DNA of 44,806 nucleotides from Bacteroidales bacterium. GTDB taxonomy: Bacteria > Bacteroidota > Bacteroidia > Bacteroidales > P3. Both the position numbers and the translations under genes were made by a program. The first letter of the stretch is position 1, and each line of letters opens with the position of its first letter. The stretch lies in contig JAFVCE010000018.1 of assembly GCA_017479385.1 (NCBI GenBank), positions 1-44,806 of the forward strand, given 5' to 3'. This document shows positions 782-34,029 of this stretch, piece after piece. Under the pieces are notes generated by a model. It saw only the letters and a program-made list of their open reading frames with translations, was not told the DNA's origin and did no database searches.

Positions 782-871
782 GTAACAACCTGAAAATCAG
801 TACGAGGGAGGTATTAAAGAGGGGTTAAGGTCGTATTGAGGTCGAGCAACCCTTGATACAGAGCCACTTAC
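782..871 (+). repeat. 90-bp dispersed repeat, copy 1
   Basis: This copy aligns over 90 positions without gaps to the copies at 10124, 23755 and 33940. It begins GTAAC and ends CTTAC. The shared core (positions 33-64 of the element) reads TTAAAGAGGGGTTA, then A/G, then GGTCGTATTGAGGTCGA. The arms are partly inverted and more variable. It lies between two co-directional genes, about 120 bases upstream of the pcrA promoter. I do not recognise the family. Confidence 0.85.
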
Positions 872-992
872 ACCCCGATTTTCCCCCCTTTCTGCCCCCT
901 CGTTTTATCGGTTTTTCCCCAATGTGTGTCGCTTGCAGAAAGGCGCTTGCCGAGCCGTAAGCCTCTGATTTTGTTCTGTCGCAAAAAAATAT

Positions 993-1023
993 TTTGCCAC
1001 GTCGGCGAAAGTTCGTAACTTTG
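993..1023 (+). promoter_or_regulatory. Promoter of pcrA-dtd
   Basis: Bacteroidota-type promoter: TTTG at 993-996, a 19-base spacer, then TAACTTTG at 1016-1023. The predicted transcript start is about 45 bases before the pcrA start codon. Confidence 0.8.
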
Positions 1024-1072
1024 CAAATGATTAACCATTGTTCGAACAATAAAAAGCTATCCGTAAAGCCCG

Positions 1073-3388
1073 ATGAGCGAACTACTTGACCAACTGAACG
1101 AACCCCAACGCGAGGCAGCCGCATGCGTGGATGGCCCCGTGATGATTATTGCAGGCGCCGGCAGCGGCAAGACCCGCACACTGACCTATCGCATTGCCCA
1201 TTTGGTGGAATGTGGCGTCGACCCATTCAACATTCTGGCCCTTACTTTCACCAACAAGGCCGCCGGCGAGATGAAGGAACGCATCATGAAGCTGGTGGGG
1301 CCCGAGGCTCGCAACCTCTGGATGGGCACGTTCCACTCCATTTTTGCGCGTATCCTCCGCTCCGAGGCCACCAAGCTGGGCTACATTGCAAGTTTTACCA
1401 TCTACGACAGCGACGACAGCAAGAACGTGGTGAAGCAGATAATCAAGCAGCTCAACCTCGAGCCCAAGGTCTACAATCCCTCGTTCGTCATGGGCCGTAT
1501 CTCGATGGCCAAAAGCAACCTCATCTCGCCCGAAGACTATGCCAACAACCCCGAGATTATGCAGAGCGACCAAACGGCTCGCAAGCCCCAGATAAGCACC
1601 ATCTATCGGCTCTACAACCAGCGCCTGCGCAACGCTATGGCCATGGACTTCGACGACCTGCTGTTCAACATGAACATCCTTCTGCGCGATTTTCCCGAGG
1701 TGTTGGTTAAGTATCAAAACCGCTTTCGCTATATCATGGTCGACGAGTATCAAGACACTAACTACGCTCAGTATCTGATTGTTAAGAAGCTGGCTGCTCG
1801 CTTCCAAAACATCTGCGTGGTGGGCGACGACGCTCAGAGCATCTACGCTTTTCGCGGTGCAAATATACAAAATATTTTTAATTTCAGACGAGATTATCCA
1901 AATTTGCACCTTTTTAAATTGGAACAAAACTACCGTTCGACCCAAAACATAGTGGGTGCGGCAAACTCCATCATAGCCCAAAATCGCGAGCAGATAAAGA
2001 AAGAGGTGTGGACAGAAAACGCTAAAGGTGAGCCCATTACGCTCATGCGTGCCGCCGACGAGCGCGACGAAGGCCGTCAGGTGGCCGACTCGATAATGGC
2101 TACCCGGCTCGACGAAGATTTGGACTATAAAGATTTTGCCATTCTCTACCGCACCAACATTCAGAGCCGCGCCGTCGAGGAAGCCCTGCGCAAAATGAAC
2201 ATCCCCTATCGAATCTACCAGGGCATCTCTTTCTACGGCCGCAAAGAAATCAAAGACGTGTTGGCCTATATGAGGCTGGTGGTCAATAACCACGACGACG
2301 AGTCGCTGCTGCGCATCATCAACTTGCCACCACGCGGAATTGGGCAAACCACGATGGACAAGATACGCACCGCCGCTGCCGATAACGACGTGTCTATCAA
2401 TACGGTACTCGAAAATATTCAGCAGTTTGACCTCGGCATCAGTGCCTCGACCACTACCAAAATCGAGGACTTCATGGTCATGATTAAGCGCTTCTCGGCC
2501 ACGATGATGAACATCGATGCCTTCACTCTGGCCAAACAAATAGTATACAATTCTGGACTGCTCACCATGCTCCGCAACGACGATGACCCCGAAAACGCCA
2601 ACCGAATCGAGAACATCGAAGAATTGCTCAATGGTGTGCAAGAATTTTGTGAAAAAGAGGACGAAATCACCCCCGAGGAGCAACTTGAAGGAGGGACCGA
2701 AGCCAAGCCATTCCGAACCCTCGACGAGTTCCTTCAACAGGTGCTTCTGCTCACCTCGGAAGATAAGGATAAAGAAAATCCTAACAAGGTGAGTCTCATG
2801 ACTATACATGCCGCCAAGGGCTTGGAATTTCCCTGCGTGTATGTGGTTGGGATGGAGGAAAACCTCTTTCCCTCGTTGCTCTCAATCTCGTCGCGCCAAG
2901 AATTGGAGGAGGAGCGCAGATTGTTCTATGTGGCCGTCACCCGCGCCGAGCGTCACCTCACACTCAGCTACGCCATGACGCGCTACCAGTACGGCTCCGC
3001 TTCGTGCCAAGATATGAGCCGCTTTGTCGAGGAGATAGACAGCTCATATATACGTATGCCAGCCACCAAGCGCTCGCCGTTCCCCTCGCCAGGCAGTTTC
3101 CCACGCGCATTTACCGCCGTAGGCAAACCGGCTGCGACACAACCACAGTTCAAAAAACGTGCACCAGCCGCCCCAATCCAGCCCAAAGGGCCCACGATGG
3201 CCAATCCTCCGGCCGAGATTGGGCGCATTCAGGCCGGTATGAAGGTGGAACACAGTAAGTTTGGTACGGGCAAAGTGCTCAACGTCGAGGGTAGTGGCGA
3301 CTCGCGCAAAGCTACCGTCTTCTTCGACGGCGTGGGCAACAAGCAGCTGCTGCTGAAGTTTGCAAAATTAACCATAGTAGAGGAGTAG
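1073..3388 (+). CDS. pcrA: UvrD/PcrA-type ATP-dependent DNA helicase
   Basis: A superfamily 1A 3'-to-5' DNA helicase for nucleotide excision and mismatch repair and for clearing replication blocks in the cytoplasm. All helicase motifs are readable: Walker A GAGSGKT at residues 28-34, Walker B VDEYQDT near 223-229, motif III GDDAQSIYAFRGA near 252, motif IV LEQNYRST, motif V with TIHAAKGLEF near 577, and motif VI VAVTRAERH near 620. The C-terminal 50 residues (GMKVEHSKFGTGKV onward) form the Tudor-like domain of PcrA/UvrD proteins that binds RNA polymerase. Length (771 aa) is normal. dtd starts 6 bases after the stop, so the two are probably co-transcribed. A short AT-rich stretch inside the gene (about 1856-1920) stands out against the GC-rich remainder. 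Confidence 0.95.
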   Translation: MSELLDQLNEPQREAAACVDGPVMIIAGAGSGKTRTLTYRIAHLVECGVDPFNILALTFTNKAAGEMKERIMKLVGPEARNLWMGTFHSIFARILRSEATKLGYIASFTIYDSDDSKNVVKQIIKQLNLEPKVYNPSFVMGRISMAKSNLISPEDYANNPEIMQSDQTARKPQISTIYRLYNQRLRNAMAMDFDDLLFNMNILLRDFPEVLVKYQNRFRYIMVDEYQDTNYAQYLIVKKLAARFQNICVVGDDAQSIYAFRGANIQNIFNFRRDYPNLHLFKLEQNYRSTQNIVGAANSIIAQNREQIKKEVWTENAKGEPITLMRAADERDEGRQVADSIMATRLDEDLDYKDFAILYRTNIQSRAVEEALRKMNIPYRIYQGISFYGRKEIKDVLAYMRLVVNNHDDESLLRIINLPPRGIGQTTMDKIRTAAADNDVSINTVLENIQQFDLGISASTTTKIEDFMVMIKRFSATMMNIDAFTLAKQIVYNSGLLTMLRNDDDPENANRIENIEELLNGVQEFCEKEDEITPEEQLEGGTEAKPFRTLDEFLQQVLLLTSEDKDKENPNKVSLMTIHAAKGLEFPCVYVVGMEENLFPSLLSISSRQELEEERRLFYVAVTRAERHLTLSYAMTRYQYGSASCQDMSRFVEEIDSSYIRMPATKRSPFPSPGSFPRAFTAVGKPAATQPQFKKRAPAAPIQPKGPTMANPPAEIGRIQAGMKVEHSKFGTGKVLNVEGSGDSRKATVFFDGVGNKQLLLKFAKLTIVEE

Positions 3389-3394
3389 CCTGCA

Positions 3395-3853
3395 ATGAGA
3401 GTTGTGATACAGCGCGTTAGCCGCGCCTCGGTGAGTGTTGGTGGCGAAGAGAAGGGCCGCATAGGTCGCGGAATGGCCATACTTGTTGGCGTGTGCGACC
3501 AAGATGGCGATGAAGACATAGAGTACCTTTGCCAAAAAATTGTCAAACTGCGTATTTTCCCCGACGCAGATGGGGTGATGAATCTACCACTAACGGCTGT
3601 CGATGGCGCCAATGTTCTGGTGGTGAGCCAGTTCACGCTGATGGCATCGACGCGCAAGGGCAATCGGCCCAGCTACATCCGCGCTTCGCGTCCCGAGGTG
3701 GCAGTGCCGCTCTACGAGCGCTTTGTTTCGCGTCTGGCCGAATTGTTGGGGCACAACATCCCGACCGGTGTTTTCGGAGCCGATATGCAGCTCGAGCTGG
3801 TCAACGACGGCCCAGTGACCATTATCATCGACTCGCACGAGCGCGACTTTTGA
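3395..3853 (+). CDS. dtd: D-aminoacyl-tRNA deacylase
   Basis: This enzyme hydrolyses D-aminoacyl-tRNA (and Gly-tRNA-Ala in this family), a chiral proofreading step in translation. Conserved DTD segments are present: the SQFTL motif with its catalytic Thr near residue 81, KGNRPSY, and the C-terminal NDGPVTI segment corresponding to the Gly-cisPro motif that excludes L-amino acids. At 152 aa the length is typical. The ATG lies six bases behind the pcrA stop; a purine-rich AGAGGAG overlapping the pcrA end could act as a ribosome-binding site. No separate promoter is visible. Confidence 0.93.
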
Positions 3854-3916
3854 GGCGATTATGTCTGAGGTGACGAATTTTTTGCCCAGACAGGCCGAAT
3901 TTTCAAAAAAAATATG

Positions 3917-3924
3917 TAAATTTG
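3917..3924 (+). promoter_or_regulatory. -7 element of ribD promoter
   Basis: TAAATTTG lies 12 bases before the ribD ATG, implying a very short 5' leader. No clear TTTG was found at the expected upstream spacing. Confidence 0.55.
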
Positions 3925-3935
3925 CATTTTGAATT

Positions 3936-4859
3936 ATGAACACCAACGCCGACATCGTCTATATGCGCCGCTGCTTGCAACTGGCTGCTTCGGGGCTGGG
4001 CCGAGTGAGACCTAACCCGCTGGTTGGCTGCGTGGTGGTGCGCGACGGGCAAGTGCTCTCCGAAGGATTTCACCAAGAGTATGGCCACAACCACGCCGAG
4101 CGCAACGCCCTCATGCGAGCAGGCGATTTTGCTGGCGCTACGCTCTACGTAAATCTCGAGCCATGTTCGCACTATGGCAAAACGCCGCCCTGCGCCGACC
4201 TCGTGGTGGAACGCGGCATAAAGCGGGTGGTGTGTTGCAACGACGACCCCAACCCACTGGTCTCGGGCCGTGGTTTTGAACGTCTCGAAAAGGATGGAAT
4301 AGAGGTGGTTCGCCACCTGCTTTGCGACGAGGGCCGTATGCTCAACAGGCGTTTCTTCACATTTATGGAAAAACGTCGACCATATGTGATACTCAAATGG
4401 GCCGAAAGCGCCGACGGCTACCTCGCGCCGGCCAACATCGGTCAGCGTTACTGGATTACCACGCCGCAACAGGACCGCCTCAACCACCGCTGGCGCACCG
4501 AGGAGGCTGCCATCCTCGTTGGCAGCGCAACCTACCTCTGCGACAACCCCTCGCTCACCGCTCGCCATTTTTGTGGGCCTCAACCGCAACCCATTGTACT
4601 CGACCGTCGAGGCCGACTCGCTAAATTGCCAGAAGGGTGGATTGGATTGCAGCAACCAACTGTTAGCCAGGTGCTTGATGAACTCTACCACCTCAAAATA
4701 CAGTCTGTCATAGTCGAGGGTGGGCGCCAGGTGCTCGATGCTTTTCTCGCCACTGGGCTATACGACGAGGTGCGCGTGCTGCGCGGCCCCGAACTCCTCG
4801 GCGGTGGACTCAAAGCCCCGGCCATACCCGCTGGTTCGACCGTAATAATGCCTTCTTAA
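3936..4859 (+). CDS. ribD: Riboflavin biosynthesis protein RibD (deaminase-reductase)
   Basis: Bifunctional cytoplasmic enzyme that deaminates 2,5-diamino-6-ribosylamino-4(3H)-pyrimidinone 5'-phosphate and then reduces the ribosyl side chain, the second and third steps of riboflavin synthesis. The N-terminal deaminase shows the zinc ligands H53 (HAE, with E55 as proton shuttle), C77 (PCSHYGKTPPC) and C86. The C-terminal half has the reductase signature (KWAESADGY and VIVEGGRQVLDAF). At 307 aa it is on the short side for RibD because the reductase domain is compact, but no motif appears lost. ribH of the same pathway lies about 3.4 kb downstream with unrelated genes in between, so the pathway is dispersed. 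Confidence 0.93.
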   Translation: MNTNADIVYMRRCLQLAASGLGRVRPNPLVGCVVVRDGQVLSEGFHQEYGHNHAERNALMRAGDFAGATLYVNLEPCSHYGKTPPCADLVVERGIKRVVCCNDDPNPLVSGRGFERLEKDGIEVVRHLLCDEGRMLNRRFFTFMEKRRPYVILKWAESADGYLAPANIGQRYWITTPQQDRLNHRWRTEEAAILVGSATYLCDNPSLTARHFCGPQPQPIVLDRRGRLAKLPEGWIGLQQPTVSQVLDELYHLKIQSVIVEGGRQVLDAFLATGLYDEVRVLRGPELLGGGLKAPAIPAGSTVIMPS

Positions 4860-4878
4860 CCACCAACATCAGGCCACC

Positions 4879-5481
4879 ATGTTCGACGATACCTACCGCA
4901 CCATCACCGCCCCAGCCGAGGGCCTCTATAAAGAAAAAGGCAGCAAATTTTTGGCCTTTGCGCACCCTGTGGCCACGGTCGAGGAGGTGAAAGTTGTACT
5001 CGACGAGCTGCGCAAAACCTATTTCGACGCGCGCCACCACTGCTACGCGTACATCCTCGGGCCACGCAAGGATGCCTATCGCGTCAACGACGACGGCGAG
5101 CCCTCTGGCACAGGCGGCCGCCCCATCCACGGCCAGTTGCTCAGTGCCGACCTTACCAACACGCTCGTTGTTGTGGTGCGCTATTTCGGCGGCGTGCTGC
5201 TCGGCGCATCTGGCTTGGCCAACGCTTACAAAACGGCCGCGCGCGACGCTATTGCCCACGCCACCATCGTGGAGCGAACAATAGACATCCGTTACCGCCT
5301 CGCTTTCGAATATGCGCTGATGAACGACGTTATGCGGGTGCTCAAAGACTTTGGCCTCAAACCCCTCTCGCAAAAGTTCGACCTCGACTGCAGCCTCGAA
5401 GTCGAAGTGCGGCAAAGCCAAAGTGTGCGACTCTACGACACACTAACCAAAATCCGTGGCGTTAAAGTGCTGGTTTTGTAG
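4879..5481 (+). CDS. yigZ: YigZ/IMPACT family protein
   Basis: Member of the UPF0029 (Impact N-terminal) family, conserved in bacteria and eukaryotes. The core motifs are evident: KGSKFLAFAHP near the N-terminus, ARHHCYAYILG, DDGEPSGTGGRPI, and VVVVRYFGGVLLGASGLANAY. A C-terminal UPF0029-type alpha/beta domain follows. Length (200 aa) is typical. Eukaryotic IMPACT regulates GCN2 signalling; the bacterial role is not settled, and nothing here decides it. It starts 19 bases after ribD with no separate promoter visible, so it is probably read through from ribD. Confidence 0.9.
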   Translation: MFDDTYRTITAPAEGLYKEKGSKFLAFAHPVATVEEVKVVLDELRKTYFDARHHCYAYILGPRKDAYRVNDDGEPSGTGGRPIHGQLLSADLTNTLVVVVRYFGGVLLGASGLANAYKTAARDAIAHATIVERTIDIRYRLAFEYALMNDVMRVLKDFGLKPLSQKFDLDCSLEVEVRQSQSVRLYDTLTKIRGVKVLVL

Positions 5482-5543
5482 CCTTCGTCTCAAAATAAAA
5501 TAGGGAAGAGCAAAAAAAAATCGACACATCCAACTTTTTTTCG

Positions 5544-5551
5544 TAATTTTG
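5544..5551 (+). promoter_or_regulatory. -7 element giving a near-leaderless rsgA transcript
   Basis: TAATTTTG ends only five bases before the GTG start codon of rsgA. With the usual few bases between this box and the transcript start, the mRNA would begin at or next to the start codon. Confidence 0.6.
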
Positions 5552-5556
5552 CAGTC

Positions 5557-7013: not shown

Positions 7014-7071
7014 AAAACAGGCCAAAAAACAAATTTTTTGCCTCGTTTCCTCGTATGTCAATTATTTTATG

Positions 7072-7079
7072 TAATTTTG
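7072..7079 (+). promoter_or_regulatory. -7 element upstream of the CNNM/CBS gene
   Basis: TAATTTTG lies 22 bases before the start codon. A TTTC at 7046-7049 could serve as a weak upstream element. Confidence 0.55.
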
Positions 7080-7101
7080 CACAGTTTTTTAAGATAAAGA
7101 A

Positions 7102-8160: not shown

Positions 8161-8210
8161 GCTTGCTCGCATAATTACTTAAATCACTCAAAATCAATGT
8201 TTCAGAACCA

Positions 8211-9640: not shown

Positions 9641-9678
9641 ATGCCACGGAAAATAACTGCAAAAAAAATATAATTTTT

Positions 9679-9712: not shown

Positions 9713-9762
9713 CACTTTGAAAAAACAATTAAAAACAGTAACATATAAAAAATCATTACATT

Positions 9763-10023
9763 ATGAACAAAACCGAGTTAGTCAACGCCGTAGCTGAAAA
9801 AACAGGCCTGACCAAAGTCGATTCGCGCAAAGCCGTCGATGCCACCATCGCCGCCCTCACCGAGGACCTCCGCGCTGGCAACAACACCACCCTCGTCGGT
9901 TTCGGCACATTCAGCGTCATCAAACGCGAAGCCCGCACCGGCATTAACCCCCGTACCAAAAAGGCCATCAAAATTCCTGCCAAGAAAGTGGCCAAATTCA
10001 AACCCAGCAAAGGCCTCCTCTAA
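9763..10023 (+). CDS. hup: HU-family nucleoid DNA-binding protein
   Basis: Small basic histone-like protein that bends DNA as a dimer. The DNABII signature GFGTFSVIKREARTGINPRT is intact in the centre, followed by the C-terminal basic tail KKVAKFKPSKGLL. The helical N-terminus begins MNKTELVNAVAEKTGL. At 86 aa it is slightly shorter than the usual 90. It has its own promoter and its own terminator (10048-10079), so it is monocistronic. Confidence 0.95.
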   Translation: MNKTELVNAVAEKTGLTKVDSRKAVDATIAALTEDLRAGNNTTLVGFGTFSVIKREARTGINPRTKKAIKIPAKKVAKFKPSKGLL

Positions 10024-10047
10024 GTCGACCTTTGTGCAACCCCAAAT

Positions 10048-10079: not shown

Positions 10080-10123
10080 TTCGCTTTTCTGGTTGGCAGA
10101 AAAATACCTCGCGCGCGGAACTC

Positions 10124-10213
10124 CTAACTTGCTGAAAATCATGGTTGAGGAGGGGTTAAAGAGGGGTTAGGGTCGTATTGAGGTCGAACAAGCATTGTCA
10201 ATCAAGCACTTAG
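10124..10213 (+). repeat. 90-bp dispersed repeat, copy 2
   Basis: Gapless 90-position match to the other copies. It begins CTAAC and ends CTTAG. The central core is identical to that of the 23755 copy from TTAAAGAGGGG to GAGGTCGAACA. Located in a convergent gap. Confidence 0.85.
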
Positions 10214-10387
10214 CCCCCAATTTTTGCCCAAAATTGGCACTTCTCAGCCTCGTCAAAACCCCGTTCTGGCCGCTCACACGCCGCTCGTTTTGCCCTCTAT
10301 GTCAACTCGCAACCCCCATATCATAAGGTCCCCTCCAGTTGCCTACAACGCCTCTGCTGCGCCCCAATCCGCACCACATGGCGACGC

Positions 10388-10415
10388 AAAAAAGGCAGAG
10401 CCACGGCTCTGCCTT
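10388..10415 (-). terminator. Intrinsic terminator of the rplM-rpsI-rpsB-tsf operon
   Basis: On the minus strand an 11-bp perfect stem (AAGGCAGAGCC with GGCTCTGCCTT) is followed directly by a run of T residues. It lies 27 bases after the tsf stop. Confidence 0.9.
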
Positions 10416-10441: not shown

Positions 10442-11428
10442 TTAGGCGCCGAGTTCGAGGCGTTTGAAACCGGTGCAGCACAGCTCCTTGTCGGCCTTGG
10501 CCATAAATTCTTTGACCTTGACTTTGCTTTCCATGATATACTCCTGCTCCATGAGGGTGTTCTCTTGGAAGTATTTGTTCAGGCGGCCGTTGGCAATCTG
10601 GTTGATTTGGGCTTCGTTGAGAGTGGCGGCTTTTTCGGCAGCTACTTTCTCTTTGATTTCGCGGGCCATCTTGACCTGCTCTTCGGTAATCCAGCCTTTG
10701 CTCATGTTCGACTCCATGTGCTCGTCGCTGTCGACGTGGGCGGGGTTGATGCCAGCTTTCTTGAGGGCGGCATCGACGGCCTTGCCAACGAGTTCTTCTT
10801 TGGTCTTCTCGATGGCCACGCGCAGCTCTTGGTCCTTAATCTCTTGGGGCACGCTGGCGGCGTCGAGGGCCACGGGGCGCATAGCCACGACCTGCATAGC
10901 GATGTCGTGACCCACCTCGTCGAATCCGCTCTTGTTCAGACCGATAATAGAGCCCATGCGGTTGCCGGGGTGTACGTAGGCGTAGACCTTCTCGGCCTCG
11001 ATGGTCTCGAAGTGGGCCAGCTCGATTTTTTCGCCAATCTTGGCCACTTGGTCGGTAATGGCGTCGGCCACACTGCTGCCGTTGAGGTCCATGGCGAGGA
11101 CCTCTTCTTTGGTGGTGATGTGGCGGCTCATGGCGGTGTCGATAATGCTGTTGGTAAAGTCGACAAAGCCGGCGTTGGTGGCCACGAAGTCGGTCTCGCA
11201 GCTCAGCATGATGAGGGCGCCGTAGTTGCCGTTCGATTTGGCCAGGACGCAGCCTTCGTTGGCGTCGCGGTCGGCACGTTTGGCGGCCATCTTTTGGCCT
11301 TTCTGGCGCAGAAGTTCGATAGCTTTTTGCATGTCGCCGTCGGTTTCGACGAGGGCCTTTTTGCAGTCCATCATTCCCACTCCGGTGAGTTTGCGGAGTT
11401 CGTTGACCTGTGAAGCGGTAATTGCCAT
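10442..11428 (-). CDS. tsf: Elongation factor Ts
   Basis: Guanine-nucleotide exchange factor that recycles EF-Tu. The N-terminal UBA-like domain contains VNELRKLTGVGMMDCKKAL (residues 7-25), followed by the core with CETDFVATNAGF, the TDFV motif that inserts into EF-Tu. At 328 aa it is longer than E. coli EF-Ts, with extra residues in the second half as is usual in Bacteroidota. It is the last gene of the ribosomal operon and is followed by a strong terminator. Relatively many T-ending Gly, Ala, Arg and Val codons suggest high expression. Confidence 0.95.
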   Translation of the reverse strand: MAITASQVNELRKLTGVGMMDCKKALVETDGDMQKAIELLRQKGQKMAAKRADRDANEGCVLAKSNGNYGALIMLSCETDFVATNAGFVDFTNSIIDTAMSRHITTKEEVLAMDLNGSSVADAITDQVAKIGEKIELAHFETIEAEKVYAYVHPGNRMGSIIGLNKSGFDEVGHDIAMQVVAMRPVALDAASVPQEIKDQELRVAIEKTKEELVGKAVDAALKKAGINPAHVDSDEHMESNMSKGWITEEQVKMAREIKEKVAAEKAATLNEAQINQIANGRLNKYFQENTLMEQEYIMESKVKVKEFMAKADKELCCTGFKRLELGA

Positions 11429-22941: not shown

Positions 22942-23613
22942 ATGGCCAAGAAACAGAGATACTACGTTGTGTGGCAGGGCAAAAAGCCCGGCATCTACAC
23001 CTCATGGGACGACTGTCGCGCGCAGGTTCAAGGGGTGCAGGGAGCGCAATACAAGGCTTTCGACTCGCTGTCCGAGGCCGAACAGGCCCTCCGAATGCCC
23101 TACCGCGCCGCTGTGCCACGTGTGGCGACAGCGCAGCCACAAAGCCACACATCGGTGCTCGTGGTCGACGCCAACGGCCTCACCACCGTCCGCCCAGGCA
23201 CACCCAACCCGCCGCTGCTCGACGCGCTGGCCGTCGATGCCGCCTGTTCGGGCAACCCCGGCGTAATGGAGTATCAGGGCATTTATATCCCCACCCGTAC
23301 GCAAGTCTTTCACCGTCGTTTTGACCTGGGAACCAATAATATAGGCGAATTTCTCGCCATAGTCCACGGCTTGAGCTACATGAAGAAACACGGCCTCGAC
23401 CAGCTCATCTACAGCGACTCGGTCAACGCCATGTCGTGGGTGCGGCAAAAACAGTGTCGCAGCAAGTTGCCCCTCGACAGCCGCACCGCCGACCTGTGGG
23501 ACTTTGTGCACCGCGCCGAGCAGTGGCTCCACGCCAACAACTACACCACCCAAATTCGCAAGTGGGATACCGACTCGTGGGGCGAGATTCCAGCCGATTT
23601 TGGCCGCAAATAA
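22942..23613 (+). CDS. rnhA: Ribonuclease HI with N-terminal viroplasmin domain
   Basis: Degrades RNA in RNA-DNA hybrids (R-loops and primers). Residues 1-52 form the caulimovirus-VI (viroplasmin) hybrid-binding domain, with YYVVWQGKKPGIYTSW. A Pro/Thr-rich linker leads to the nuclease domain (about 93-223), which shows the acidic residues expected for catalysis: D99 (VDAACSGNPG), E136 (GEFLAIVHGL), D159 (YSDSVNA) and D219 in the terminal WGEIPADFGRK. This architecture is common in Bacteroidota. Confidence 0.93.
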   Translation: MAKKQRYYVVWQGKKPGIYTSWDDCRAQVQGVQGAQYKAFDSLSEAEQALRMPYRAAVPRVATAQPQSHTSVLVVDANGLTTVRPGTPNPPLLDALAVDAACSGNPGVMEYQGIYIPTRTQVFHRRFDLGTNNIGEFLAIVHGLSYMKKHGLDQLIYSDSVNAMSWVRQKQCRSKLPLDSRTADLWDFVHRAEQWLHANNYTTQIRKWDTDSWGEIPADFGRK

Positions 23614-23727
23614 ACCCCTTGTCGCCACCTTTCAGCCACCAGCTAACCACCTGGTAGCCTCCTCGCGACAAGTGCTAACCACCCACTCGAACAACCTCAA
23701 CACTCCTCCCAACATCGGGTCAAGAAC

Positions 23728-23745
23728 GCCCCGAGGAGGGCATTT
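23728..23745 (+). terminator. Weak hairpin after rnhA
   Basis: GCCC and GGGC flank a six-base loop and are followed by ATTTTG. The stem is short, so terminator function is uncertain. It lies directly beside the 90-bp repeat copy. Confidence 0.3.
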
Positions 23746-23754
23746 TGTCGCTTC

Positions 23755-23844
23755 GTAACTGCTTGAAACTCAAGCGCTGTTCGACCTCAATACGACCCTA
23801 ACCCCTCTTTAATACCTCCCTAACCTTGATTTTCAAGTCGTTAC
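23755..23844 (-). repeat. 90-bp dispersed repeat, copy 3
   Basis: In minus orientation it begins GTAACGACTTGAAAATCAAG and ends with the inverted counterpart; the two 20-base ends match at 17 of 20 positions when one is reverse-complemented. Each end also contains its own small palindrome (CTTGA-AAA-TCAAG and GCTTGA-GTT-TCAAGC). The core matches copy 2 exactly from position 34 onward to position 67. It sits in a convergent gap. Confidence 0.87.
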
Positions 23845-23862
23845 AGAGGCAAAATTAATGGC

Positions 23863-23895
23863 CGAGAACGGGAAATCGAGCCCGTTCTCGATTTT
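23863..23895 (+). terminator. Strong hairpin in the rnhA/methyltransferase convergent gap
   Basis: A 10-bp perfect stem (CGAGAACGGG 23863-23872 with CCCGTTCTCG 23881-23890), an 8-base loop, then ATTTTTAATT on the plus strand. It is four bases from the stop codon of the minus-strand gene and may serve both directions. Confidence 0.75.
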
Positions 23896-25106
23896 TAATT
23901 ATCGATTTGAACCGAGTGGCAGAGCAGGCCGAGGCGGCGGCCCATGATGGTGGTGGCAACGAGGGTATGGCTGCCGCCGTCGCGCAGGCGTAGCTGGCGC
24001 TGCAGGTCGGCAGCTTCTGCAGGGTAGTTGCGGCAGAGCACCGAGGCGCGCCCGTCGGGTAGGAGGGGGGCAATGTGTTTGCGGCTGAGCGGCGTAGTGG
24101 TCTCGATTTCGAAAACTCGTCCGGGGAAGTCGGCCACCAGGCGCTCGGAGGTGTAGAGGTGGCTGTTGCGGTCGAGTTTGAGCAGTTCGTATCGATGGCC
24201 AATGAGGTTGAAGCATCCCCCTTTCATGAGGGCGGCATGGGGCACGTAGAGGTAGCGCTGCGCGTGTTGGCAGTAGGTGGCTTGGGCCTCGGCGGCCTCG
24301 CGGCGGCTGTAGGCAAAGTCGGCCACGCGCCCATGGGCAATGCAAACGCAGTGCATAGCTATGTCGCCAGCCTCGCCGCTGACGAATAGCACCTCCTTGC
24401 ATTCGCCACCTACGGCCATGATGTGGATTTCGGCTATTGGACCTATCTGGCTGATGGCCAGCGCTATGTCTATCATGGGCGAAGCTTTGACGACTACCCT
24501 GCGCGCGTGGGCGAGCAGCGCGGGCATGAGGGCCACGAGGTTGGGCTCGCATTGTTCGAAGGCCGCCACCTTGCGCCCGTGGGCGTCGCGGCGTGCGGGG
24601 TCTATGTAGGCCACTTCGAGTGGCTCGGCAGTGGTTGCAATCCAGTTTTCGGCCTCGGCGTTGTGGCAGACTATGTTGCTGATTTTCAGAGCAGAGAAGT
24701 TGTTTACGGCCAGTTGGTAGAGGCTTTCGTTGCGCTCAATGTAGTGCACTTTGCGCAGCTTGGCGGCGAGGGCCATGGTGTCTATGCCCATGCCGCCGGT
24801 GAGGTCGGCTGCCACGGCCGTGGGGCCAGAAAGGCGCTGGCAGAGCTGGGCCTTGTAGTTGGCGGTGGCTTCGGACGAGGCTTGCTCGCAGTTGAGGCGT
24901 GGCGGATAACAGAAAGTGCTGCTATTCAGCAGTGTGGGCCATTTGGCGGCGGCGGTTTGCAGCCCTTCTATTTGGCGCGCGGCGGCGCGGATGTCGACCT
25001 CTGGGTGGCTCGAAAGCAGCAGTTGGGCCACGTCGTCGTTGCGGTGTTGCCAAGCGAAGCGGAGCGTGGCTTCGTCGGGTGGGGTTACGAAAAATCCGTC
25101 GGCCAT
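23895..25106 (-). CDS. THUMP-like SAM-dependent methyltransferase (PG_1098 type)
   Basis: A 403-residue class I methyltransferase-like protein. SAM motif I is ADLTGGMGIDTMAL at about 100-113; an acidic motif (YIERNES) follows, then VAYIDPARRD, an NPPY-like position rendered as IDPAR. After the Rossmann domain come a ferredoxin-like region and the C-terminal THUMP-like domain (RHKIAPLL-type segment then VLCRNYP). Bacteroidales homologues are annotated as THUMP-like domain proteins and presumably modify RNA; the substrate is unknown. The start at 25106 (MADGFFVTPP) is preferred; an in-frame ATG at 25178 would add 24 residues. No other methyltransferase partner is nearby. Confidence 0.8.
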   Translation of the reverse strand: MADGFFVTPPDEATLRFAWQHRNDDVAQLLLSSHPEVDIRAAARQIEGLQTAAAKWPTLLNSSTFCYPPRLNCEQASSEATANYKAQLCQRLSGPTAVAADLTGGMGIDTMALAAKLRKVHYIERNESLYQLAVNNFSALKISNIVCHNAEAENWIATTAEPLEVAYIDPARRDAHGRKVAAFEQCEPNLVALMPALLAHARRVVVKASPMIDIALAISQIGPIAEIHIMAVGGECKEVLFVSGEAGDIAMHCVCIAHGRVADFAYSRREAAEAQATYCQHAQRYLYVPHAALMKGGCFNLIGHRYELLKLDRNSHLYTSERLVADFPGRVFEIETTTPLSRKHIAPLLPDGRASVLCRNYPAEAADLQRQLRLRDGGSHTLVATTIMGRRLGLLCHSVQIDN

Positions 25107-25203
25107 AGTATCAAGATAACGTCGGCCGGCGGATTTTATTGTTTGTTCGTATCGAAATTTTTTTCGGCAGCCTGCCACTCTCGGAGTGGTGGGGGAGTGG
25201 GGC

Positions 25204-26106: not shown

Positions 26107-26160
26107 GCTATATTATATATTTATTGAATCCTTAAATATTATAACGCCGAATGTTGAGTT

Positions 26161-26610: not shown

Positions 26611-26618
26611 AGTTGTTC

Positions 26619-28894: not shown

Positions 28895-29045
28895 TGCTTT
28901 GTTCACGTTACGATGTTTTATATGTTTTTTTCGCGAGTACATTATTAATAACTTACAACCGCGTTTTTTATTGCGCGAGGGGGCAAAAAAAACACTAAAA
29001 AAAGTTAAAATCGAAAAAAAAATCTGTGCTTTTCCAAAAAATGAC

Positions 29046-29053
29046 TATATTTG
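29046..29053 (+). promoter_or_regulatory. -7 element of the 29164 T9SS gene
   Basis: TATATTTG about 110 bases before the start codon. No good TTTG at the expected distance. Confidence 0.6.
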
Positions 29054-29081
29054 CAATGTGTAAAAAAACACGCAAAAGCTG

Positions 29082-29106
29082 TCTCAAAAACCGAAACTTT
29101 TTGAGA
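29082..29106 (+). promoter_or_regulatory. 5' leader hairpin of the 29164 T9SS gene
   Basis: A 9-bp perfect stem (TCTCAAAAA with TTTTTGAGA) and a 7-base loop, about 20-25 bases into the predicted transcript. It may stabilise the mRNA; it is not followed by a T-tract. Confidence 0.45.
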
Positions 29107-29163
29107 ATCAGTGCTATAAAAATGAAAATGAAAACAAATTATTAATCATTAAAATCAAACAAA

Positions 29164-31914
29164 ATGAAAAAAACGTTAATGGTTTTAGGTTTTGCACTGT
29201 GCGCCACAATCGCATTTGCGCAAACTGGACGAGTTGCTACAAGCAACATGGCTGCCAAAGCCAACGCTGCAGCCAACGTTGAGGCTTTCAACCCCCAGTC
29301 GCAAGCTGGCTACAAAGCCTCCATCTTCACCAAAGAGGTGGGCGATACCCTTGCCGAATACCACTTTGCTAATGAAACTGGCTTCACCACTGGTGTTTAC
29401 AACAGCACCAACGCTGCTCCCGCCACTGTCGAGGGCCGCGCCAACCACAACCAAGACGGTTATTTCGCCACTTGGCACCGCGTCGACAGCGCCGACTACG
29501 AAATGAATAGTGCCGAGTATCTGCAGAACTATCCCAGCTTCAGTTCGTCGGTTTACGCCAACTTCCGTCGTTTCGTTATCGCCGTCATGAGCCCGTGGGC
29601 CGGTTGGGGTATCAACGACAGTAACGGCTTCATGCTTATGTCCTGCATCGACCAGACTCAGATGGATGTCAGCAAGAACTTCAACGCTTACATCGAGTTT
29701 GGCCCCATCGACGCTTCTTCTGCCGCCGTTGTCGACCTCCGCTTCATCCAGTTCTACATGAAGTTCTACGACACCTGCTACATCGACTATACCGATGCTC
29801 AAGGTGTTTGGCACTCGATGGAAATCAACGTCGAGGGTATTGACTGCGAAATCAACGAGTACAGCCGCGGTCTGCAACTCTACACCCTTCCCCTTGCTGC
29901 CGCCAACAACAGCAGCCTGAAACTGCGCCTCCGCTGGTACAGCAAACCCTACAGCGCCCGTCAGGCCGCCTACGGCTATGTGTGGGCTATCGACGATGTC
30001 ATTGTCCGCCGTGGCGCTGCCAGCCGTCTCTACACCTACTATGCTGACAAGTATGTGGAAGGTGCCTATGGCCAAGTTCCTCAAAGTATGCAACTCCCCC
30101 TCTCTTGGTATACCCCCATTAAGAACAACGGTTCTGTCGCTCAAACCGGTATCGTTGCCAAGACCTACTCGGGAACCGACAAAGCCAACCTCGCTGTTTC
30201 TGCCACCGGCAACCACGCCGATATGCCCTCCAACCCTGGCAAAATCGACAGTATGATTGTTGAAGGCCGTACCTCTGTTGCTCAGCACACTGGCTGGTTA
30301 GGCTACGACCCGACCTATATGGAGAGAGAGGCCTCTTTCACCAACAATGGTCTTAACACCACTGAAACTGGTCTGCACTATGCCACCACCACCATCACCA
30401 CCGACGACGAAAATGTTACTGGTGTGTACGACACCATTCTCTATCGCGTCACCGCTCCTGAAGATGGTCTCTACACCTGGAGTATCGACAATGGCCTCTT
30501 CCTCGCTGGTAACTACTTCAGTGCTGGCTATGTTGTCGAAAATGGCAACACCTACACCACCGACGGTAATGGTGGCTACACCAAAGCTGGCTATCGTGTA
30601 AGCAACCGCTACACCACTGGTAACGTAATCCCCACCGACACCAATGGCGATGCCTGGGTTATTCGTGGTGTCGAGCTCGTAACCGCTGCTGTTCCCCAGA
30701 GCCGTAACTACATTGGTGCTCGTATCAGCGCTACCCTCAATGCCGACGTCTTCACCTCGGATGGTCAAAGTGTCTACTTCTACGACAGCGATATACCTCT
30801 GACTACTGGCGACACCATCTACCTAAGCACTGGTGCCGGCGTTCACCAAGTTACCGGTAGCGAAGTCAACACCACCTATGGCTATGCCTATCCTGGCATC
30901 TACAACACCATCCGCATCATGTTCCCCGAGCAGCCCGAACTCTTCCCCAATATGTCCTATCGCATTGGTTACGCTCTCGAAGCCGAGCACGCTTTTGCTG
31001 TTGCCCAAACCAGCACCACCTATGCCGAGACCTACACCAGCGACACCACCGCCACTTGGGGCCGTCTGCTTGCCGACACCACCGGAACCCTCCGTCAATA
31101 TGGCTACCAGTTCGCTCCCAACCCTTACACCACCTACCTCCAAGACCCCACCAACGCCGACAACCCTGGCCGCTTTGCCTATATGCCCGATGCTCCTTAC
31201 ATCCGTATGCTTGTTGGTCCTCGCGTCCCCGTCGAGCGTAAAAACATTGAGTTCCAGTGCGAAACTATCGATGTCGACGGCGAACTCGTGATGAACGGTG
31301 GTGGCCGCTTCCGTTGGAATGGTCAAGACTCTGTCTGCCGCACCATCGACCGTGCTGTGGGTTCCTCTGTCTCTATCGACATGGTTCCTTTCACCGACAT
31401 CAACGCCTACAAGGTCGACTCTGTTTGGGTTGACGGGACTTATGTCGAGCCTTACGATGCTGAGGCCGACGAGGGCGACCCCAACCTCATTATCGACTAC
31501 GACCACACCCGTTGGATTATCGACAGCACCCGCAACGCCAGCGGTGCCTGGACCTACAACTACGCTCACAACTACCACGAGATTTACACCTACACCTTCA
31601 CCAACCTGCAGGCCGACCATAAAATCAAGGCTAAATATAAATATGTTCCCAATGGTATCGACCCCGTTCGCCAGGATGCCAGCATCAGCATCTATCCTAA
31701 CCCCGCCAGCAGCTCTGCCACCATCACCATCGAAGGTGTGACCGGCAAGGTTAGCCTCTCGCTCATCGACATGAGCGGCCGCGTGGTTCTGAACAAGACC
31801 GTCGATGCCGAATCGGTGCAAAATCTCAACCTCAACAACCTCGCCAAGGGCGCCTACTTTGTGCGCGTCACCAACGACGAGTTCAGCAAGGTCGAAAAAC
31901 TCATCGTCCGCTAA
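29164..31914 (+). CDS. T9SS-secreted protein, large, highly expressed type
   Basis: A 916-residue exported protein with signal MKKTLMVLGFALCATIAFAQ. Residues about 60-300 form a beta-rich region that resembles carbohydrate- or surface-binding jelly-roll modules (alternating aromatic strands, ending YVWAIDDVIV). The central 450 residues are rich in Thr, Tyr, Gly and Asn with no domain I recognise. The C-terminal 80 residues are a type A T9SS sorting domain (SIYPNPASSSATITI to VEKLIVR). Codons differ from neighbours by frequent T-ending Gly, Ala, Arg and Val codons, as in the translation genes, which suggests high expression. A very strong terminator follows. Surface-layer or adhesin roles are conjecture. 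Confidence 0.85.
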   Translation: MKKTLMVLGFALCATIAFAQTGRVATSNMAAKANAAANVEAFNPQSQAGYKASIFTKEVGDTLAEYHFANETGFTTGVYNSTNAAPATVEGRANHNQDGYFATWHRVDSADYEMNSAEYLQNYPSFSSSVYANFRRFVIAVMSPWAGWGINDSNGFMLMSCIDQTQMDVSKNFNAYIEFGPIDASSAAVVDLRFIQFYMKFYDTCYIDYTDAQGVWHSMEINVEGIDCEINEYSRGLQLYTLPLAAANNSSLKLRLRWYSKPYSARQAAYGYVWAIDDVIVRRGAASRLYTYYADKYVEGAYGQVPQSMQLPLSWYTPIKNNGSVAQTGIVAKTYSGTDKANLAVSATGNHADMPSNPGKIDSMIVEGRTSVAQHTGWLGYDPTYMEREASFTNNGLNTTETGLHYATTTITTDDENVTGVYDTILYRVTAPEDGLYTWSIDNGLFLAGNYFSAGYVVENGNTYTTDGNGGYTKAGYRVSNRYTTGNVIPTDTNGDAWVIRGVELVTAAVPQSRNYIGARISATLNADVFTSDGQSVYFYDSDIPLTTGDTIYLSTGAGVHQVTGSEVNTTYGYAYPGIYNTIRIMFPEQPELFPNMSYRIGYALEAEHAFAVAQTSTTYAETYTSDTTATWGRLLADTTGTLRQYGYQFAPNPYTTYLQDPTNADNPGRFAYMPDAPYIRMLVGPRVPVERKNIEFQCETIDVDGELVMNGGGRFRWNGQDSVCRTIDRAVGSSVSIDMVPFTDINAYKVDSVWVDGTYVEPYDAEADEGDPNLIIDYDHTRWIIDSTRNASGAWTYNYAHNYHEIYTYTFTNLQADHKIKAKYKYVPNGIDPVRQDASISIYPNPASSSATITIEGVTGKVSLSLIDMSGRVVLNKTVDAESVQNLNLNNLAKGAYFVRVTNDEFSKVEKLIVR

Positions 31915-31951
31915 TTGCGCTGACGACAAAAGTCATAAGAACCTAACTGCA

Positions 31952-31989
31952 GCAGGGCGCCTCGCAAGCGAGGCGCCCTGCCTGTTTTT
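31952..31989 (+). terminator. Strong terminator after the 29164 T9SS gene
   Basis: A 14-bp perfect GC-rich stem (31952-31965 with 31968-31981) with a 2-base loop, then TGTTTTT. It lies 37 bases past the stop codon. Confidence 0.93.
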
Positions 31990-32053
31990 ACCCCCATGGC
32001 CACAATGTCACGCTTTGAGGCTGTTGCACGGTGGCGCCAAAAAAATATGTGCT

Positions 32054-32091
32054 GCAAAAGTTCGCTATGTCGAACTTTTTGCGTAACTTTG
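32054..32091 (+). promoter_or_regulatory. Promoter and palindrome upstream of the C69 peptidase
   Basis: The -7 box TAACTTTG is at 32084-32091, 25 bases before the start codon. Directly upstream lies an 11-bp inverted repeat (GCAAAAGTTCG at 32054-32064, six-base spacer, CGAACTTTT-T-GC at 32071-32082). It occupies the spacer and -33 region, where no TTTG is present, so it could be an operator for a dimeric regulator. Confidence 0.55.
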
Positions 32092-32116
32092 CAATTTGGT
32101 TTAAACCGTAGAAGAA

Positions 32117-33811
32117 ATGAAAAACGCACTCTCGATATTGCTAACACTCTCGCTCGCAGCCTCGTCGGCGCTGGCCTGCACCAACCTCATAGTGGGCAAA
32201 AAAGCGTCGGCCGACGGCAGTGTGATGTGCACATACAATTGCGACGGATTTGGCTTTGCTGGCTCGCTCTACTACAGCCCTGCTGGCCGCCACACCCCTG
32301 GCGAACCCCTCGCCATCCGCGGTTGGGGCCCCGTCCACGAAGGTCAGTTTGTGGAGCAGGTCGAGTATACCTACAACGTTGTTGGCTTTATGAACGAGCG
32401 CCAGCTAACCATAGTCGAGAGCACCTTCGATGGCCGCCTCGAGTTACAGAACCGCGACGGGCTGCTCGACTACTTTAGCCTTATTCGCCTTGCCCTGCAA
32501 CGCTCGTCGGCGGCTCGCGAAGCCATTGCCTGTATGGCCGACCTTGTGGACCGCTACGGCTACAACAGCACTGGCGAGAGCCTCACCATCTGTGACCCCG
32601 ACGAGGCTTGGATTATGGAGATTGTGGGCAAAGGGCCCGGGCGCAAAGGAGCCGTGTGGGTGGCCTTGCGCATTCCAGACGACTGCATTTGCGCCCACGC
32701 CAACCTGAGCCGCATACGCCAGTTCCCGCTCGAAAAACGCAAGCCGTTTCGCAGCCTCAGTAGTAAGAATATCAAGCAGATAACCCGGCCCGAGGTTGAG
32801 TGCGTCTACTCGGCCGATGTCGTTGCCTTTGCGCGCGAAAAGGGCTACTTTGCTGGTCCCGACAGCGCTTTCTCGTTTCGCGACGCCTATTGCCCCATCG
32901 ACTTCGAAAACGTGCGCTACGCCGACGCCCGTGTGTGGAGTTTCTTCAACCACCACCGCACCGACATGGCGCAGTATCTGCCCTACATCAACGGCGATTT
33001 TGCCACCTGCGACCACCTGCCGCTTTGGGTCAAGCCCGACAAACAGCTATCGCTGCGCGACCTCCAGGCCGATATGCGCGACCACTTCGAAGGTACGCCG
33101 CTCGACATGACGGCCGACGCGAGTGCCGGCCCGTGGCGTATGCCTATCAGGCCGCTCCCTATGCACTTCGAGACCACCAACGGCACCCCGCTCTTCCGCG
33201 AACGCCCCATAGCCACACAGCAAAGCGGCTTCACCATGACCTGCCAAATGCGCCGCTGGCTGCCCGACGACGTGGGCGGTGTGTGCTGGTTTAACTGCGA
33301 CGACGCCGACATGGTGGCCTACGTGCCCCTCTATTGCTGCTTGACGCAGGTGCCCGACCCCTTCCGCCCCGAAAACAACCAGCACAACGAGTTCAGCTTC
33401 GAGTCTGCCTTCTGGATGAACAACTGGGTGGCCAACATGATTTACCCACGCTACAGCATGATGATAGGCGACTTGCGCCGCGCACAGCGCGAGCTCGAAG
33501 ACTACTACTTTGCCGACCAAGATAGCCTCATCGCAACCCTCGATGGACTCACCCCAGCCGAGCGCCAGCAACTGCTCAACAAGAAGTCGATAGCCTATGC
33601 CAACCGCATGATGAAGCGGTGGGACGCGCTGGCCAAGCACCTCATTGTCAAGTATAACGACCAGGTGGTGAAGCGCGAAAACCCCGACGGCACATTCCAA
33701 CGCTGGGGCTACGAAACCCCAGGCTACGACCAGCGCTTCATCGACGCCATACCCGCCGCCACCGCCGACCGCTACCACCTGCAAGAAGTCATAGACCGCA
33801 GAGAGCGCTGA
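32117..33811 (+). CDS. Secreted C69-family dipeptidase
   Basis: A 564-residue Ntn-hydrolase of the peptidase U34/C69 family. The signal peptide (MKNALSILLTLSLAASSALA) ends exactly before C21 in ACTNLIVGKKASADGS; in this family the N-terminal Cys exposed by processing is the nucleophile. Other conserved stretches are NCDGFGFA, STGESLTICDPDEAWIMEIVGKGP, and AYCPIDFENVRYADARVWSFFNHHRTDM. The family cleaves dipeptides or short peptides. Export places it in the periplasm or outside the cell; no sorting domain is visible. Its own promoter and terminator make it a single-gene unit. Confidence 0.9.
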   Translation: MKNALSILLTLSLAASSALACTNLIVGKKASADGSVMCTYNCDGFGFAGSLYYSPAGRHTPGEPLAIRGWGPVHEGQFVEQVEYTYNVVGFMNERQLTIVESTFDGRLELQNRDGLLDYFSLIRLALQRSSAAREAIACMADLVDRYGYNSTGESLTICDPDEAWIMEIVGKGPGRKGAVWVALRIPDDCICAHANLSRIRQFPLEKRKPFRSLSSKNIKQITRPEVECVYSADVVAFAREKGYFAGPDSAFSFRDAYCPIDFENVRYADARVWSFFNHHRTDMAQYLPYINGDFATCDHLPLWVKPDKQLSLRDLQADMRDHFEGTPLDMTADASAGPWRMPIRPLPMHFETTNGTPLFRERPIATQQSGFTMTCQMRRWLPDDVGGVCWFNCDDADMVAYVPLYCCLTQVPDPFRPENNQHNEFSFESAFWMNNWVANMIYPRYSMMIGDLRRAQRELEDYYFADQDSLIATLDGLTPAERQQLLNKKSIAYANRMMKRWDALAKHLIVKYNDQVVKRENPDGTFQRWGYETPGYDQRFIDAIPAATADRYHLQEVIDRRER

Positions 33812-33895
33812 AAATATCTTAACCCAAATCGGTCATCGGGGGCGTAACGTGTGCTACGAAAATTGTAAAATAGTTCGTCCTAACGACCGATAGAG

Positions 33896-33923
33896 TGGGG
33901 GGCTCTTGAGTCCCCCATTTTTT
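33896..33923 (+). terminator. Intrinsic terminator of the C69 peptidase gene
   Basis: A 10-bp stem (TGGGGGGCTC with GAGTCCCCCA, including one G-U pair) with a TT loop, followed by six T residues. Confidence 0.9.
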
Positions 33924-33939
33924 GCTTTTTTACCCCCAC

Positions 33940-34029
33940 CTAATTGCTTCATTCCCAGGGGTTCGGTCGTGTTAAAGAGGGGTTAAGGTCGTATTGAGGT
34001 CGAACAGAGCTTGATATTCAGATAGTTAG
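33940..34029 (+). repeat. 90-bp dispersed repeat, copy 4
   Basis: The most diverged copy in the first 32 positions, yet still exactly 90 bases: it begins CTAAT and ends GTTAG. The core from position 33 (TTAAAGAGGGGTTA, A, GGTCGTATTGAGGTCGA) is intact. Located in a convergent gap, 16 bases after a terminator T-tract. Confidence 0.82.

What the first reader, a model, noticed from the sequence alone, without database searches (positions are those of the whole stretch)
782..34029. A dispersed, gapless 90-bp repeat family with an invariant core and complementary ends
Four intergenic segments (782-871, 10124-10213, 23755-23844 reversed, 33940-34029) are each exactly 90 bp and align without a single gap. 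Positions 33-64 are almost invariant (TTAAAGAGGGGTTA, A/G, GGTCGTATTGAGGTCGA) while the outer arms vary. All begin [G/C]TAA and end TTA[C/G]; the first and last base are complementary in every copy (G-C, C-G, G-C, C-G), and copy 3 has 17 of 20 matching terminal bases. This is the reverse of a typical MITE, where the ends are conserved and the middle drifts. Fixed length and conserved core suggest a selected protein- or RNA-binding site, or an element mobilised by recognition of the core. Four copies in under 45 kb would imply a very large number genome-wide. I do not recognise it as a described family.
Basis: seen in the sequence. Interest (0 to 1): 0.87.

Follow-up and report, generated by a model that had tools for sequence, protein, structure and literature searches.

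The report
Helically phased 11-bp repeat arrays
Between genes that point at each other, this bacterium and several relatives carry many short DNA arrays built from 11-base units, one per turn of the helix, whose spelling differs between species while the spacing stays; they look like places where DNA is bent around a protein, perhaps gyrase, and not like ordinary jumping genes.

Summary
The repeat is real and much more numerous than four: 84 exact 14-mer cores and 150 model hits, the scoring cap, in this 2.28-Mb genome. Three inferences fail. The ends do not covary. Length is not fixed: the left arm can slip 10-11 bp. The element does not stop at 90 bp. The core is a tandem of 11-bp units, and an A+T/G+C rhythm of 11 bp, phase-locked to it, runs from about -30 to beyond +200. 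A-tracts at fixed phase are all-A or all-T (53 of 84; 17.5 expected), so DNA shape seems selected. Of 117 copies with both neighbours known, 74 lie between convergent genes. I found no Y1/RAYT or DDE_Tnp_1 transposase and no target-site duplication. Several other species of the genus carry 11-bp arrays with other units; 8 lightly sampled genomes of other families showed none. Best reading: curved DNA wrapped by protein, most likely gyrase, where transcription-driven positive supercoils meet. Gyrase binding is inferred, not shown; two of my tests of it were weak or inconclusive.

The parts
753..909 (+). copy 1 with phased flanks (element positions -28 to 128)
782..871 (+). copy 1, the 90-bp part named in the finding; lies between two genes that both read +
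814..845 (+). copy 1 core, 32-mer, 0 mismatches
10095..10251 (+). copy 2 with phased flanks; between a convergent HU-family gene (9763-10023 +, PF00216) and an EF-Ts gene (10442-11428 -)
10124..10213 (+). copy 2, 90-bp part
10156..10187 (+). copy 2 core
23717..23873 (-). copy 3 with phased flanks; between convergent genes 22942-23613 (+) and 23895-25106 (-)
23755..23844 (-). copy 3, 90-bp part
23781..23812 (-). copy 3 core
33911..34067 (+). copy 4 with phased flanks; between convergent genes 32117-33811 (+, peptidase C69) and 34196-35266 (-)
33940..34029 (+). copy 4, 90-bp part
33972..34003 (+). copy 4 core
33892..33921 (+). terminator-like hairpin beside copy 4 (1 found, 0.9 expected in shuffles, so weak)
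10392..10415 (+). terminator-like hairpin beside copy 2 (1 found, 0.7 expected in shuffles)
23862..23891 (.). terminator-like hairpin beside copy 3, seen on both strands (2 found, 0.5 expected)

Best explanation
The repeat is a DNA-level structural site: a run of 11-bp units with inverted arms (STAACTGCCTGAWWWTCAG) on both sides, followed by A+T/G+C alternation in phase with the helix over at least 230 bp. It is bent around a protein. The protein most likely is DNA gyrase, whose known motif is a centre of about 36 bp with flanks of 10-11-bp G+C periodicity and which acts on positive supercoils; the sites sit where convergent transcription should pile up positive supercoils. Shown: copy number, 11-bp phase, independent A-tract polarity, convergent location, absence of pairing, no Y1 or DDE_Tnp_1 transposase found, other units in congeners. 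Inferred: wrapping, gyrase as the binder, supercoil relief as the function. My odds: protein-wrapped or bent DNA site of some kind 0.7; gyrase in particular 0.4.
For: Phase-locked 11-bp profile, noncoding positions only, 114 copies: amplitude 0.18 at -46..-3, 0.25-0.30 in the core, 0.24 at 86-129, 0.14 at 152-195, 0.06 at 218-261. Pure A or pure T tracts at 98-102 in 53 of 84 copies, 17.5 +/- 3.5 expected (largest of 1000 shuffles 30), polarity unrelated to that at 13-15 (14:12:4:4). Left-arm slips are mostly one helical turn. 74 convergent, 39 tandem, 4 divergent of 117; in 20 stretches chosen away from the 84 known copies, 8 of 19 convergent gaps against 2 of 56 tandem and 0 of 24 divergent hold one. 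Modelled curvature: end-to-contour 0.847 against 0.933 shuffled; 68% of copies beat all 5 of their shuffles, chance 17% (wedge values recalled). GyrA with six C-terminal blades. Gyrase motif in the literature: 130 bp, 10.75-bp G+C period, downstream of genes, BIME-2 (PMC6379681, passages); 10-11-bp period in all gyrases tested, stronger on positively supercoiled DNA (PMC12324340, section 12). Mu gyrase site ranks 9 and 26 of 3050 bins with two of six templates.
Against: The other four templates rank the Mu site 80, 109, 182 of 3050 and 561 of 3048. The gyrase cleavage-domain pattern matches 4 of 6 positions at best, which I judge to be within chance. Modelled handedness is inconsistent: 59 of 84 whole elements left-handed, 57 of 84 right halves right-handed. 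The phased region is longer than the 130-bp gyrase motif and stronger on the right; mirror symmetry is only moderate (best r 0.52, next 0.45). Gyrase alone does not explain a nearly invariant 32-bp core that differs between congeners. PMC6379681 reports that downstream regions in E. coli do not score higher for the motif.
Confidence: 0.4

Rival explanations
1. A dedicated, sequence-specific array-binding nucleoid protein, not gyrase, polymerises on the 11-bp units and co-evolves with them, so that the units change together in each species.
For: The core is nearly invariant within this genome but different in congeners and still in the same 11-bp register: TTRAGGTCGTA here, TTAAGGTCGGG and TTGAGGTCGGG in G113, TTCGGGTCGTA in G132; TGGTAGGTNNN in G004 (195 hits); ACCGTAYCAAC in G002 and G035 (55 and 47 hits). 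An arm-like motif is found more widely than the core: 35 hits against 5 reversed controls in the 117 genomes other than own, G113 and G132.
Against: No candidate protein was found; HU/IHF family has only 2 members here and no other DNA-binding family was searched. Arm-like motifs also occur away from cores (95 hits against 6 in shuffled sequence).
Confidence: 0.28
2. A non-autonomous mobile element (MITE-like) spread by a transposase that recognises the arms or core.
For: Some copies have arms 86-91% identical with mostly unrelated flanks, arms are inverted, and one junction (own L025, G132 L274) has an element in one species and none in the other.
Against: No target-site duplication above shuffles over the boundaries tested; no sharp boundary; no Y1_Tnp and no DDE_Tnp_1 in this genome. 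Other transposase families were not searched. Arm pairs do not covary.
Confidence: 0.14
3. Tandem-duplication drift plus recombination between copies, tolerated because convergent gaps lack promoters, with weak or no function.
For: Units are simple tandem repeats; in G113 and G132 loci L270 and L271 the two flanking genes each lie beside a copy in this genome but at different places, as if rearrangement had occurred at copies.
Against: Period is 11 and hardly any other: own 40 windows at lag 11 against 0-4 at lags 8-10 and 12-14; independent A-tract polarity at fixed phase; drift predicts neither.
Confidence: 0.1
4. An RNA element or transcription terminator in 3' untranslated regions.
For: Location after gene ends.
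Against: No covariation in ends or arm hairpins, no Rfam match in the window, tandem-gap orientation 23 with and 16 against the genes.
Confidence: 0.05
5. A DNA-uptake or polar chromosome signal (DUS- or KOPS-like).
For: Species-specific dialects and dispersed copies without a transposase found.
Against: Almost no copies in genes (3 of 128); orientation along contigs random (64 of 129 neighbours alike, 64.1 expected); far longer than such signals (recalled).
Confidence: 0.03

Closest known systems
BIME-2/REP clusters of E. coli (gyrase-bound extragenic repeats)
   Same: Dispersed, group-specific, at 3' ends and between convergent genes; gyrase cleaves many BIME-2 (PMC6379681, passages).
   Different: No hairpin or arm covariation, no Y1/RAYT gene in this genome, built of 11-bp units with phased flanks.
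Mu strong gyrase site and the 130-bp gyrase motif
   Same: Long, degenerate, G+C phased at 10-11 bp around a non-periodic or differently phased centre; Mu site ranks high with some templates.
   Different: Here there are at least 150 copies with a nearly fixed 32-bp core; the phased stretch is longer; binding untested.
11-bp A-tract periodicity and curved intergenic DNA of bacteria
   Same: Same period, attributed to supercoiling or packaging in the literature (PMC3372288, passages; PMC4132750, abstract in search listing).
   Different: Here the signal is phase-locked to a repeated core and concentrated in convergent gaps; not a diffuse genomic bias.
MITEs
   Same: Short, dispersed, inverted arms.
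   Different: Core conserved and arms variable, no target duplication, no sharp ends, no matching transposase found.
ParR/parC-type centromeres with 11-bp iterons (recalled, no call)
   Same: Helically phased iterons that wrap DNA.
   Different: Hundreds of chromosomal sites instead of one plasmid locus; no ParR searched for.

Membership tests
REP/BIME with RAYT | palindromic hairpin kept by compensatory change | tested here: not met
   arm pairs at expectation in 72 and 79 copies
REP/BIME with RAYT | RAYT (Y1_Tnp) gene in the genome | tested here: not met
   0 in this genome, 28 of 40 other genus genomes positive
REP/BIME with RAYT | extragenic, enriched at 3' ends and convergent gaps | tested here: met
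   74 of 117 convergent, 3 of 128 inside genes
REP/BIME with RAYT | gyrase binding | not testable with these tools
   needs Topo-Seq or EMSA
MITE | terminal inverted repeats defining sharp ends | tested here: not met
   inverted arms exist but ends do not covary, arms slip, phase continues outside
MITE | target-site duplication | tested here: not met
   largest excess 4 of 84 over shuffles, at 3 bp, among many boundaries tried
MITE | partner transposase | tested here: inconclusive
   Y1_Tnp and DDE_Tnp_1 absent; other families not searched
Gyrase strong site | about 130 bp with 10-11-bp G+C periodicity on both sides | tested here: met
   left side weaker and shorter than right
Gyrase strong site | two-fold symmetry about the cleavage site | tested here: inconclusive
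   best mirror correlation 0.52, next 0.45
Gyrase strong site | resemblance to the Mu site | tested here: inconclusive
   ranks 9, 26, 80, 109, 182 of 3050 and 561 of 3048 by template
Gyrase strong site | cleavage-domain base preferences | tested here: inconclusive
   best 4.0 of 6 against mean 1.48; I judge a maximum over 65 places of this size to be within chance
Gyrase strong site | gyrase with a wrapping C-terminal domain in the cell | tested here: met
   six PF03989 matches in one 860-aa frame
RNA element or terminator | conserved base pairing or strand bias with the gene | tested here: not met
KOPS-like polar signal | orientation polarity along the chromosome | tested here: not met
   64 of 129 neighbouring pairs alike, 64.1 expected (contigs only, replichores unknown)

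The most novel reading that the evidence does not exclude
A satellite-like system new to bacteria: 11-bp, one-turn DNA units assembled in register into arrays at the ends of transcription units throughout a chromosome, homogenised within each species and re-spelled between species, because a co-evolving DNA-wrapping protein (gyrase or an unknown array binder) reads helical phase plus a fast-changing unit word; in effect a dispersed, quickly evolving supercoil-boundary or chromatin code.
Probability: 0.3. Interest if true: 0.92.

Novelty: new variant of a known kind. Interest (0 to 1): 0.8.

Why it matters
If right, a whole bacterial genus marks the collision points of transcription with purpose-built curved DNA, and the marks turn over from species to species in a common 11-bp register. 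That offers a natural experiment on what gyrase or another wrapping protein reads (phase or word), on how dispersed sites evolve in concert without an evident transposase, and on whether convergent gene ends are topological boundaries. It also adds a kind of bacterial repeat that I did not find under a name in the searches made here.

Tried and rejected
Pairing of ends and arm hairpins: rejected. REP/RAYT: rejected. Target duplications: none above shuffles. Rfam, window only: nothing. Copies in IMG/VR (exact 27-mer) and in phage records (one 157-bp query): none. Copies of this core in relatives: 0 of 60 at <=2 mismatches; in the 119 other genus genomes at <=3 mismatches of a 24-mer, G113 61, G132 22, G096 1, 116 none.

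Right-handed wrap: I expected an 11-bp period to give right-handed coils throughout; the wedge model gave mixed handedness, so I do not claim it. Gyrase cleavage pattern: not significant in my judgement. Regular spacing: CV 0.69 against 0.99 for random placement and 3 against 24.9 spacings under 3 kb; convergent junctions cannot be adjacent, which by itself would cause this, so I do not claim domain spacing. Polarity: none.

Sister-site tests, 10 G113 and 9 G132 loci against the 47% of this genome that I held. L258/L146: same junction, opposite orientation. L267/L083: element beside the same gene, same orientation. L270 and L271: each flanking gene lies beside a copy here but synteny is broken. 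L274/L025: present here, absent in G132. L273 and L277: aligned genes are not beside a copy here (against conservation). L252: the junction was not held. L255: the hit lies inside an aligned stretch, probably a gene. L279 only a short hit; the other 10 had no hit in what I held. No pair is close enough (about 66-84% identity over genes) to define exact insertion points.

Limits: genes were called by my own script, checked only by eye against the ORF list of the window. Most loci were centred on copies, so the share of occupied gaps in the whole sample (72 of 87 convergent, 35 of 146 tandem, 4 of 64 divergent) is too high in absolute terms. Lag-11 arrays: of 12 other genus genomes sampled, 9 had at least one window and G015, G020, G035 had none in the little sequence held; in G002 lag 11 (14 windows) does not exceed lags 9 and 14 (14 and 29), although by gap it does (4 of 5 convergent gaps against 0 at control lags). 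Position labels printed are one higher than the element numbering used elsewhere. Adjacent terminators: hairpins are there, but their number is hardly above shuffles.
Full report
Observation. The four window copies are as described within 90 bp and cannot be chance. The whole genome holds 84 exact 14-mers, 41 forward and 43 reverse, 141 27-mers at up to 2 mismatches and 150 model hits, the number scored. I fetched all 84 exact copies with flanks (plus the window) and later more stretches.

Anatomy. Column statistics of the 84 copies show a core of tandem 11-mers: position 22 TTGAGGAGGGG or variants, 33 TTAAAGAGGGG (fixed by the choice of copies), 44 TTARGGTCGTA, 55 TTGAGGTCGAA (76 of 84). Both sides carry an arm, the same motif inverted, consensus CCTTGATATTCAGGCAGTTAC. 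The left arm is at its usual place in 71 of 84 copies and 10-11 bp further out in 7: slips of one helical turn. Outside the arms an A+T/G+C alternation continues. Averaged over 114 copies and noncoding positions only, its 11-bp amplitude is 0.24 at 86-129, 0.14 at 152-195 and fades by about 260; on the left it is 0.18 at -46 to -3 and about 0.05-0.07 beyond. The recurrent right-flank 11-mer is roughly C[GC][AT]NNWWWNSC.

Shape, not pairing. Base-pair covariation is absent for the ends and for both arm hairpins. The strongest couplings are between neighbouring columns of A-tracts: at 98-102, 53 of 84 copies are pure A or pure T against 17.5 +/- 3.5 expected, in equal numbers (27 and 26), and the choice is unrelated to that at 13-15. 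A wedge model, with values recalled, predicts more curvature than in dinucleotide shuffles (0.847 against 0.933 end-to-contour), and than in coding (0.952) or element-free intergenic windows (0.900-0.939); handedness is not consistent.

Place. With genes called by script, 128 separate copies in 1.08 Mb divide into 74 convergent, 39 tandem, 4 divergent, 8 at sequence ends and 3 inside genes. In 20 stretches chosen between the 84 known copies the bias remains: 8 of 19 convergent gaps, 2 of 56 tandem, 0 of 24 divergent. Fisher's test on gap counts of the whole sample gives 1.4e-25. In tandem gaps 23 copies follow the genes and 16 oppose them. Orientation along contigs is random. Element-free convergent gaps also show 11-bp power (1.80) above coding (1.08).

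Relatives. In 26 relatives the tsf junction shown has no such element by eye. But other genus members have arrays of 11-bp units of other spelling. G004: TGGTAGGTGAA, TGGTAGGTATC, TGGTTCGACTC, 195 pattern hits. G002: TACCAACACCG and TATCAACTCCT, often inverted about CCATGG, 55 pattern hits; G035 47. G028: TTGTTCTTCGA; G001: CTTCGTCTGTT; G012: TACTAGCGTAA. G113 and G132 carry versions near to this genome's: TTAAGGTCGGG with TTGAGGTCGGG, and TTCGGGTCGTA. Windows of 44 bp with at least 57% identity at lag 11: own 40 against 0-4 at lags 8-10 and 12-14; G028 7 against 0; G004 12 against 0-4; G002 no excess by this count. Three of 12 other genus genomes (G015, G020, G035) had none in the small samples, although G015 and G035 have pattern hits elsewhere. 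Eight genomes of other families, 46 kb of intergenic DNA, had none. By gap, lag-11 arrays in the 11 other genus genomes counted fall in 8 of 12 convergent gaps against 35 of 163 others (p 0.0017); here they fall in 14 of 20 convergent, 9 of 65 tandem and 7 of 28 divergent gaps. One named record carries this genome's core: a Bacteroidales MAG from roe deer rumen, JAFVBF010000042.1, one copy; that scan may leave out the window's own or very near genomes.

Mechanism. A long, shape-selected, helically phased stretch at convergent gene ends is what a DNA-wrapping protein would use. Gyrase fits in length class, period and place: the E. coli motif has a 36-bp centre and two 47-bp flanks with 10.75-bp G+C period, and cleavage sites are enriched downstream of transcribed operons and in BIME-2 (PMC6379681, abstract and passages); gyrases of three species show a 10-11-bp G+C period, stronger on positively supercoiled DNA (PMC12324340, abstract and section 12). 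This genome encodes a GyrA with six blades. A scan of phage Mu with the average profile ranks the annotated cut site 9th to 561st of about 3050 bins depending on template: suggestive at best. The cleavage-domain pattern gave nothing clear. So wrapping is well supported by anatomy, and gyrase is the best single guess at 0.4.

How copies spread stays open. Y1_Tnp and DDE_Tnp_1 are absent, there is no target duplication, yet some copies share arms to 91% with mostly unrelated flanks. One junction is filled here and empty in G132; one is filled in G113 in the opposite orientation; two show broken synteny with copies at both broken ends; two others do not line up with copies here. Ectopic recombination between copies, or a mobile system not searched for, are possible.

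Novelty. No Rfam match in the window and no description in the searches made (a library of openly licensed papers only). I file it as a new variant of a known kind (dispersed extragenic structural repeats), since by function it may be a gyrase-type site, while its build is unlike REP/BIME or MITE.

Noticed in passing
L147:14072, L148:5047, L149:1371, L150:12236 (this genome): Other 11-bp arrays with different units (ATCAACTCCCT, ATAGGGACTTG, CGACTGAAGAA, TTAGTTGATCC) in divergent or tandem gaps; a second unit vocabulary in the same genome.
   Followed up: partly
L153:10714, L140:16655, L142:7085, L152:10134 (this genome): A second class of element: one arm directly followed by units ending in TTAACATCG, or their relatives, resembling the build in G113.
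   Followed up: partly
L203:6681, L204, L205, L208 (genome G004): Arrays abut a long inverted repeat TGTTAATAGATGTTAAAC...GTTTAACATCTATTAACA or close variants.
   Followed up: no
L190-L201 (genome G002): Many tandem repeats at lag 7 and its multiples in addition to the 11-bp arrays.
   Followed up: no
L046 and L084 (starts of contigs C8 and C23); L044 (end of C5) and window 782-871: Near-identical copies at contig ends: right arm and right flank identical in the first pair, arms 95% and left flank 92% in the second; probably assembly breaks at repeats.
   Followed up: no
L270 and L271 (G113, G132) against L052, L073, L055, L173: Breaks of synteny fall at elements, as if the copies served as recombination sites.
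   Followed up: partly
L147:5489-5562: A short stretch 95% identical to a G132 locus (L277) is a tRNA-Phe gene, not an array.
   Followed up: yes
intergenic DNA of this genome, G002 and G004: Recurrent 12-mers TGTATCTTTGCA and TGCAAAGWTACG, perhaps promoter elements of the Bacteroidota type (recalled).
   Followed up: no
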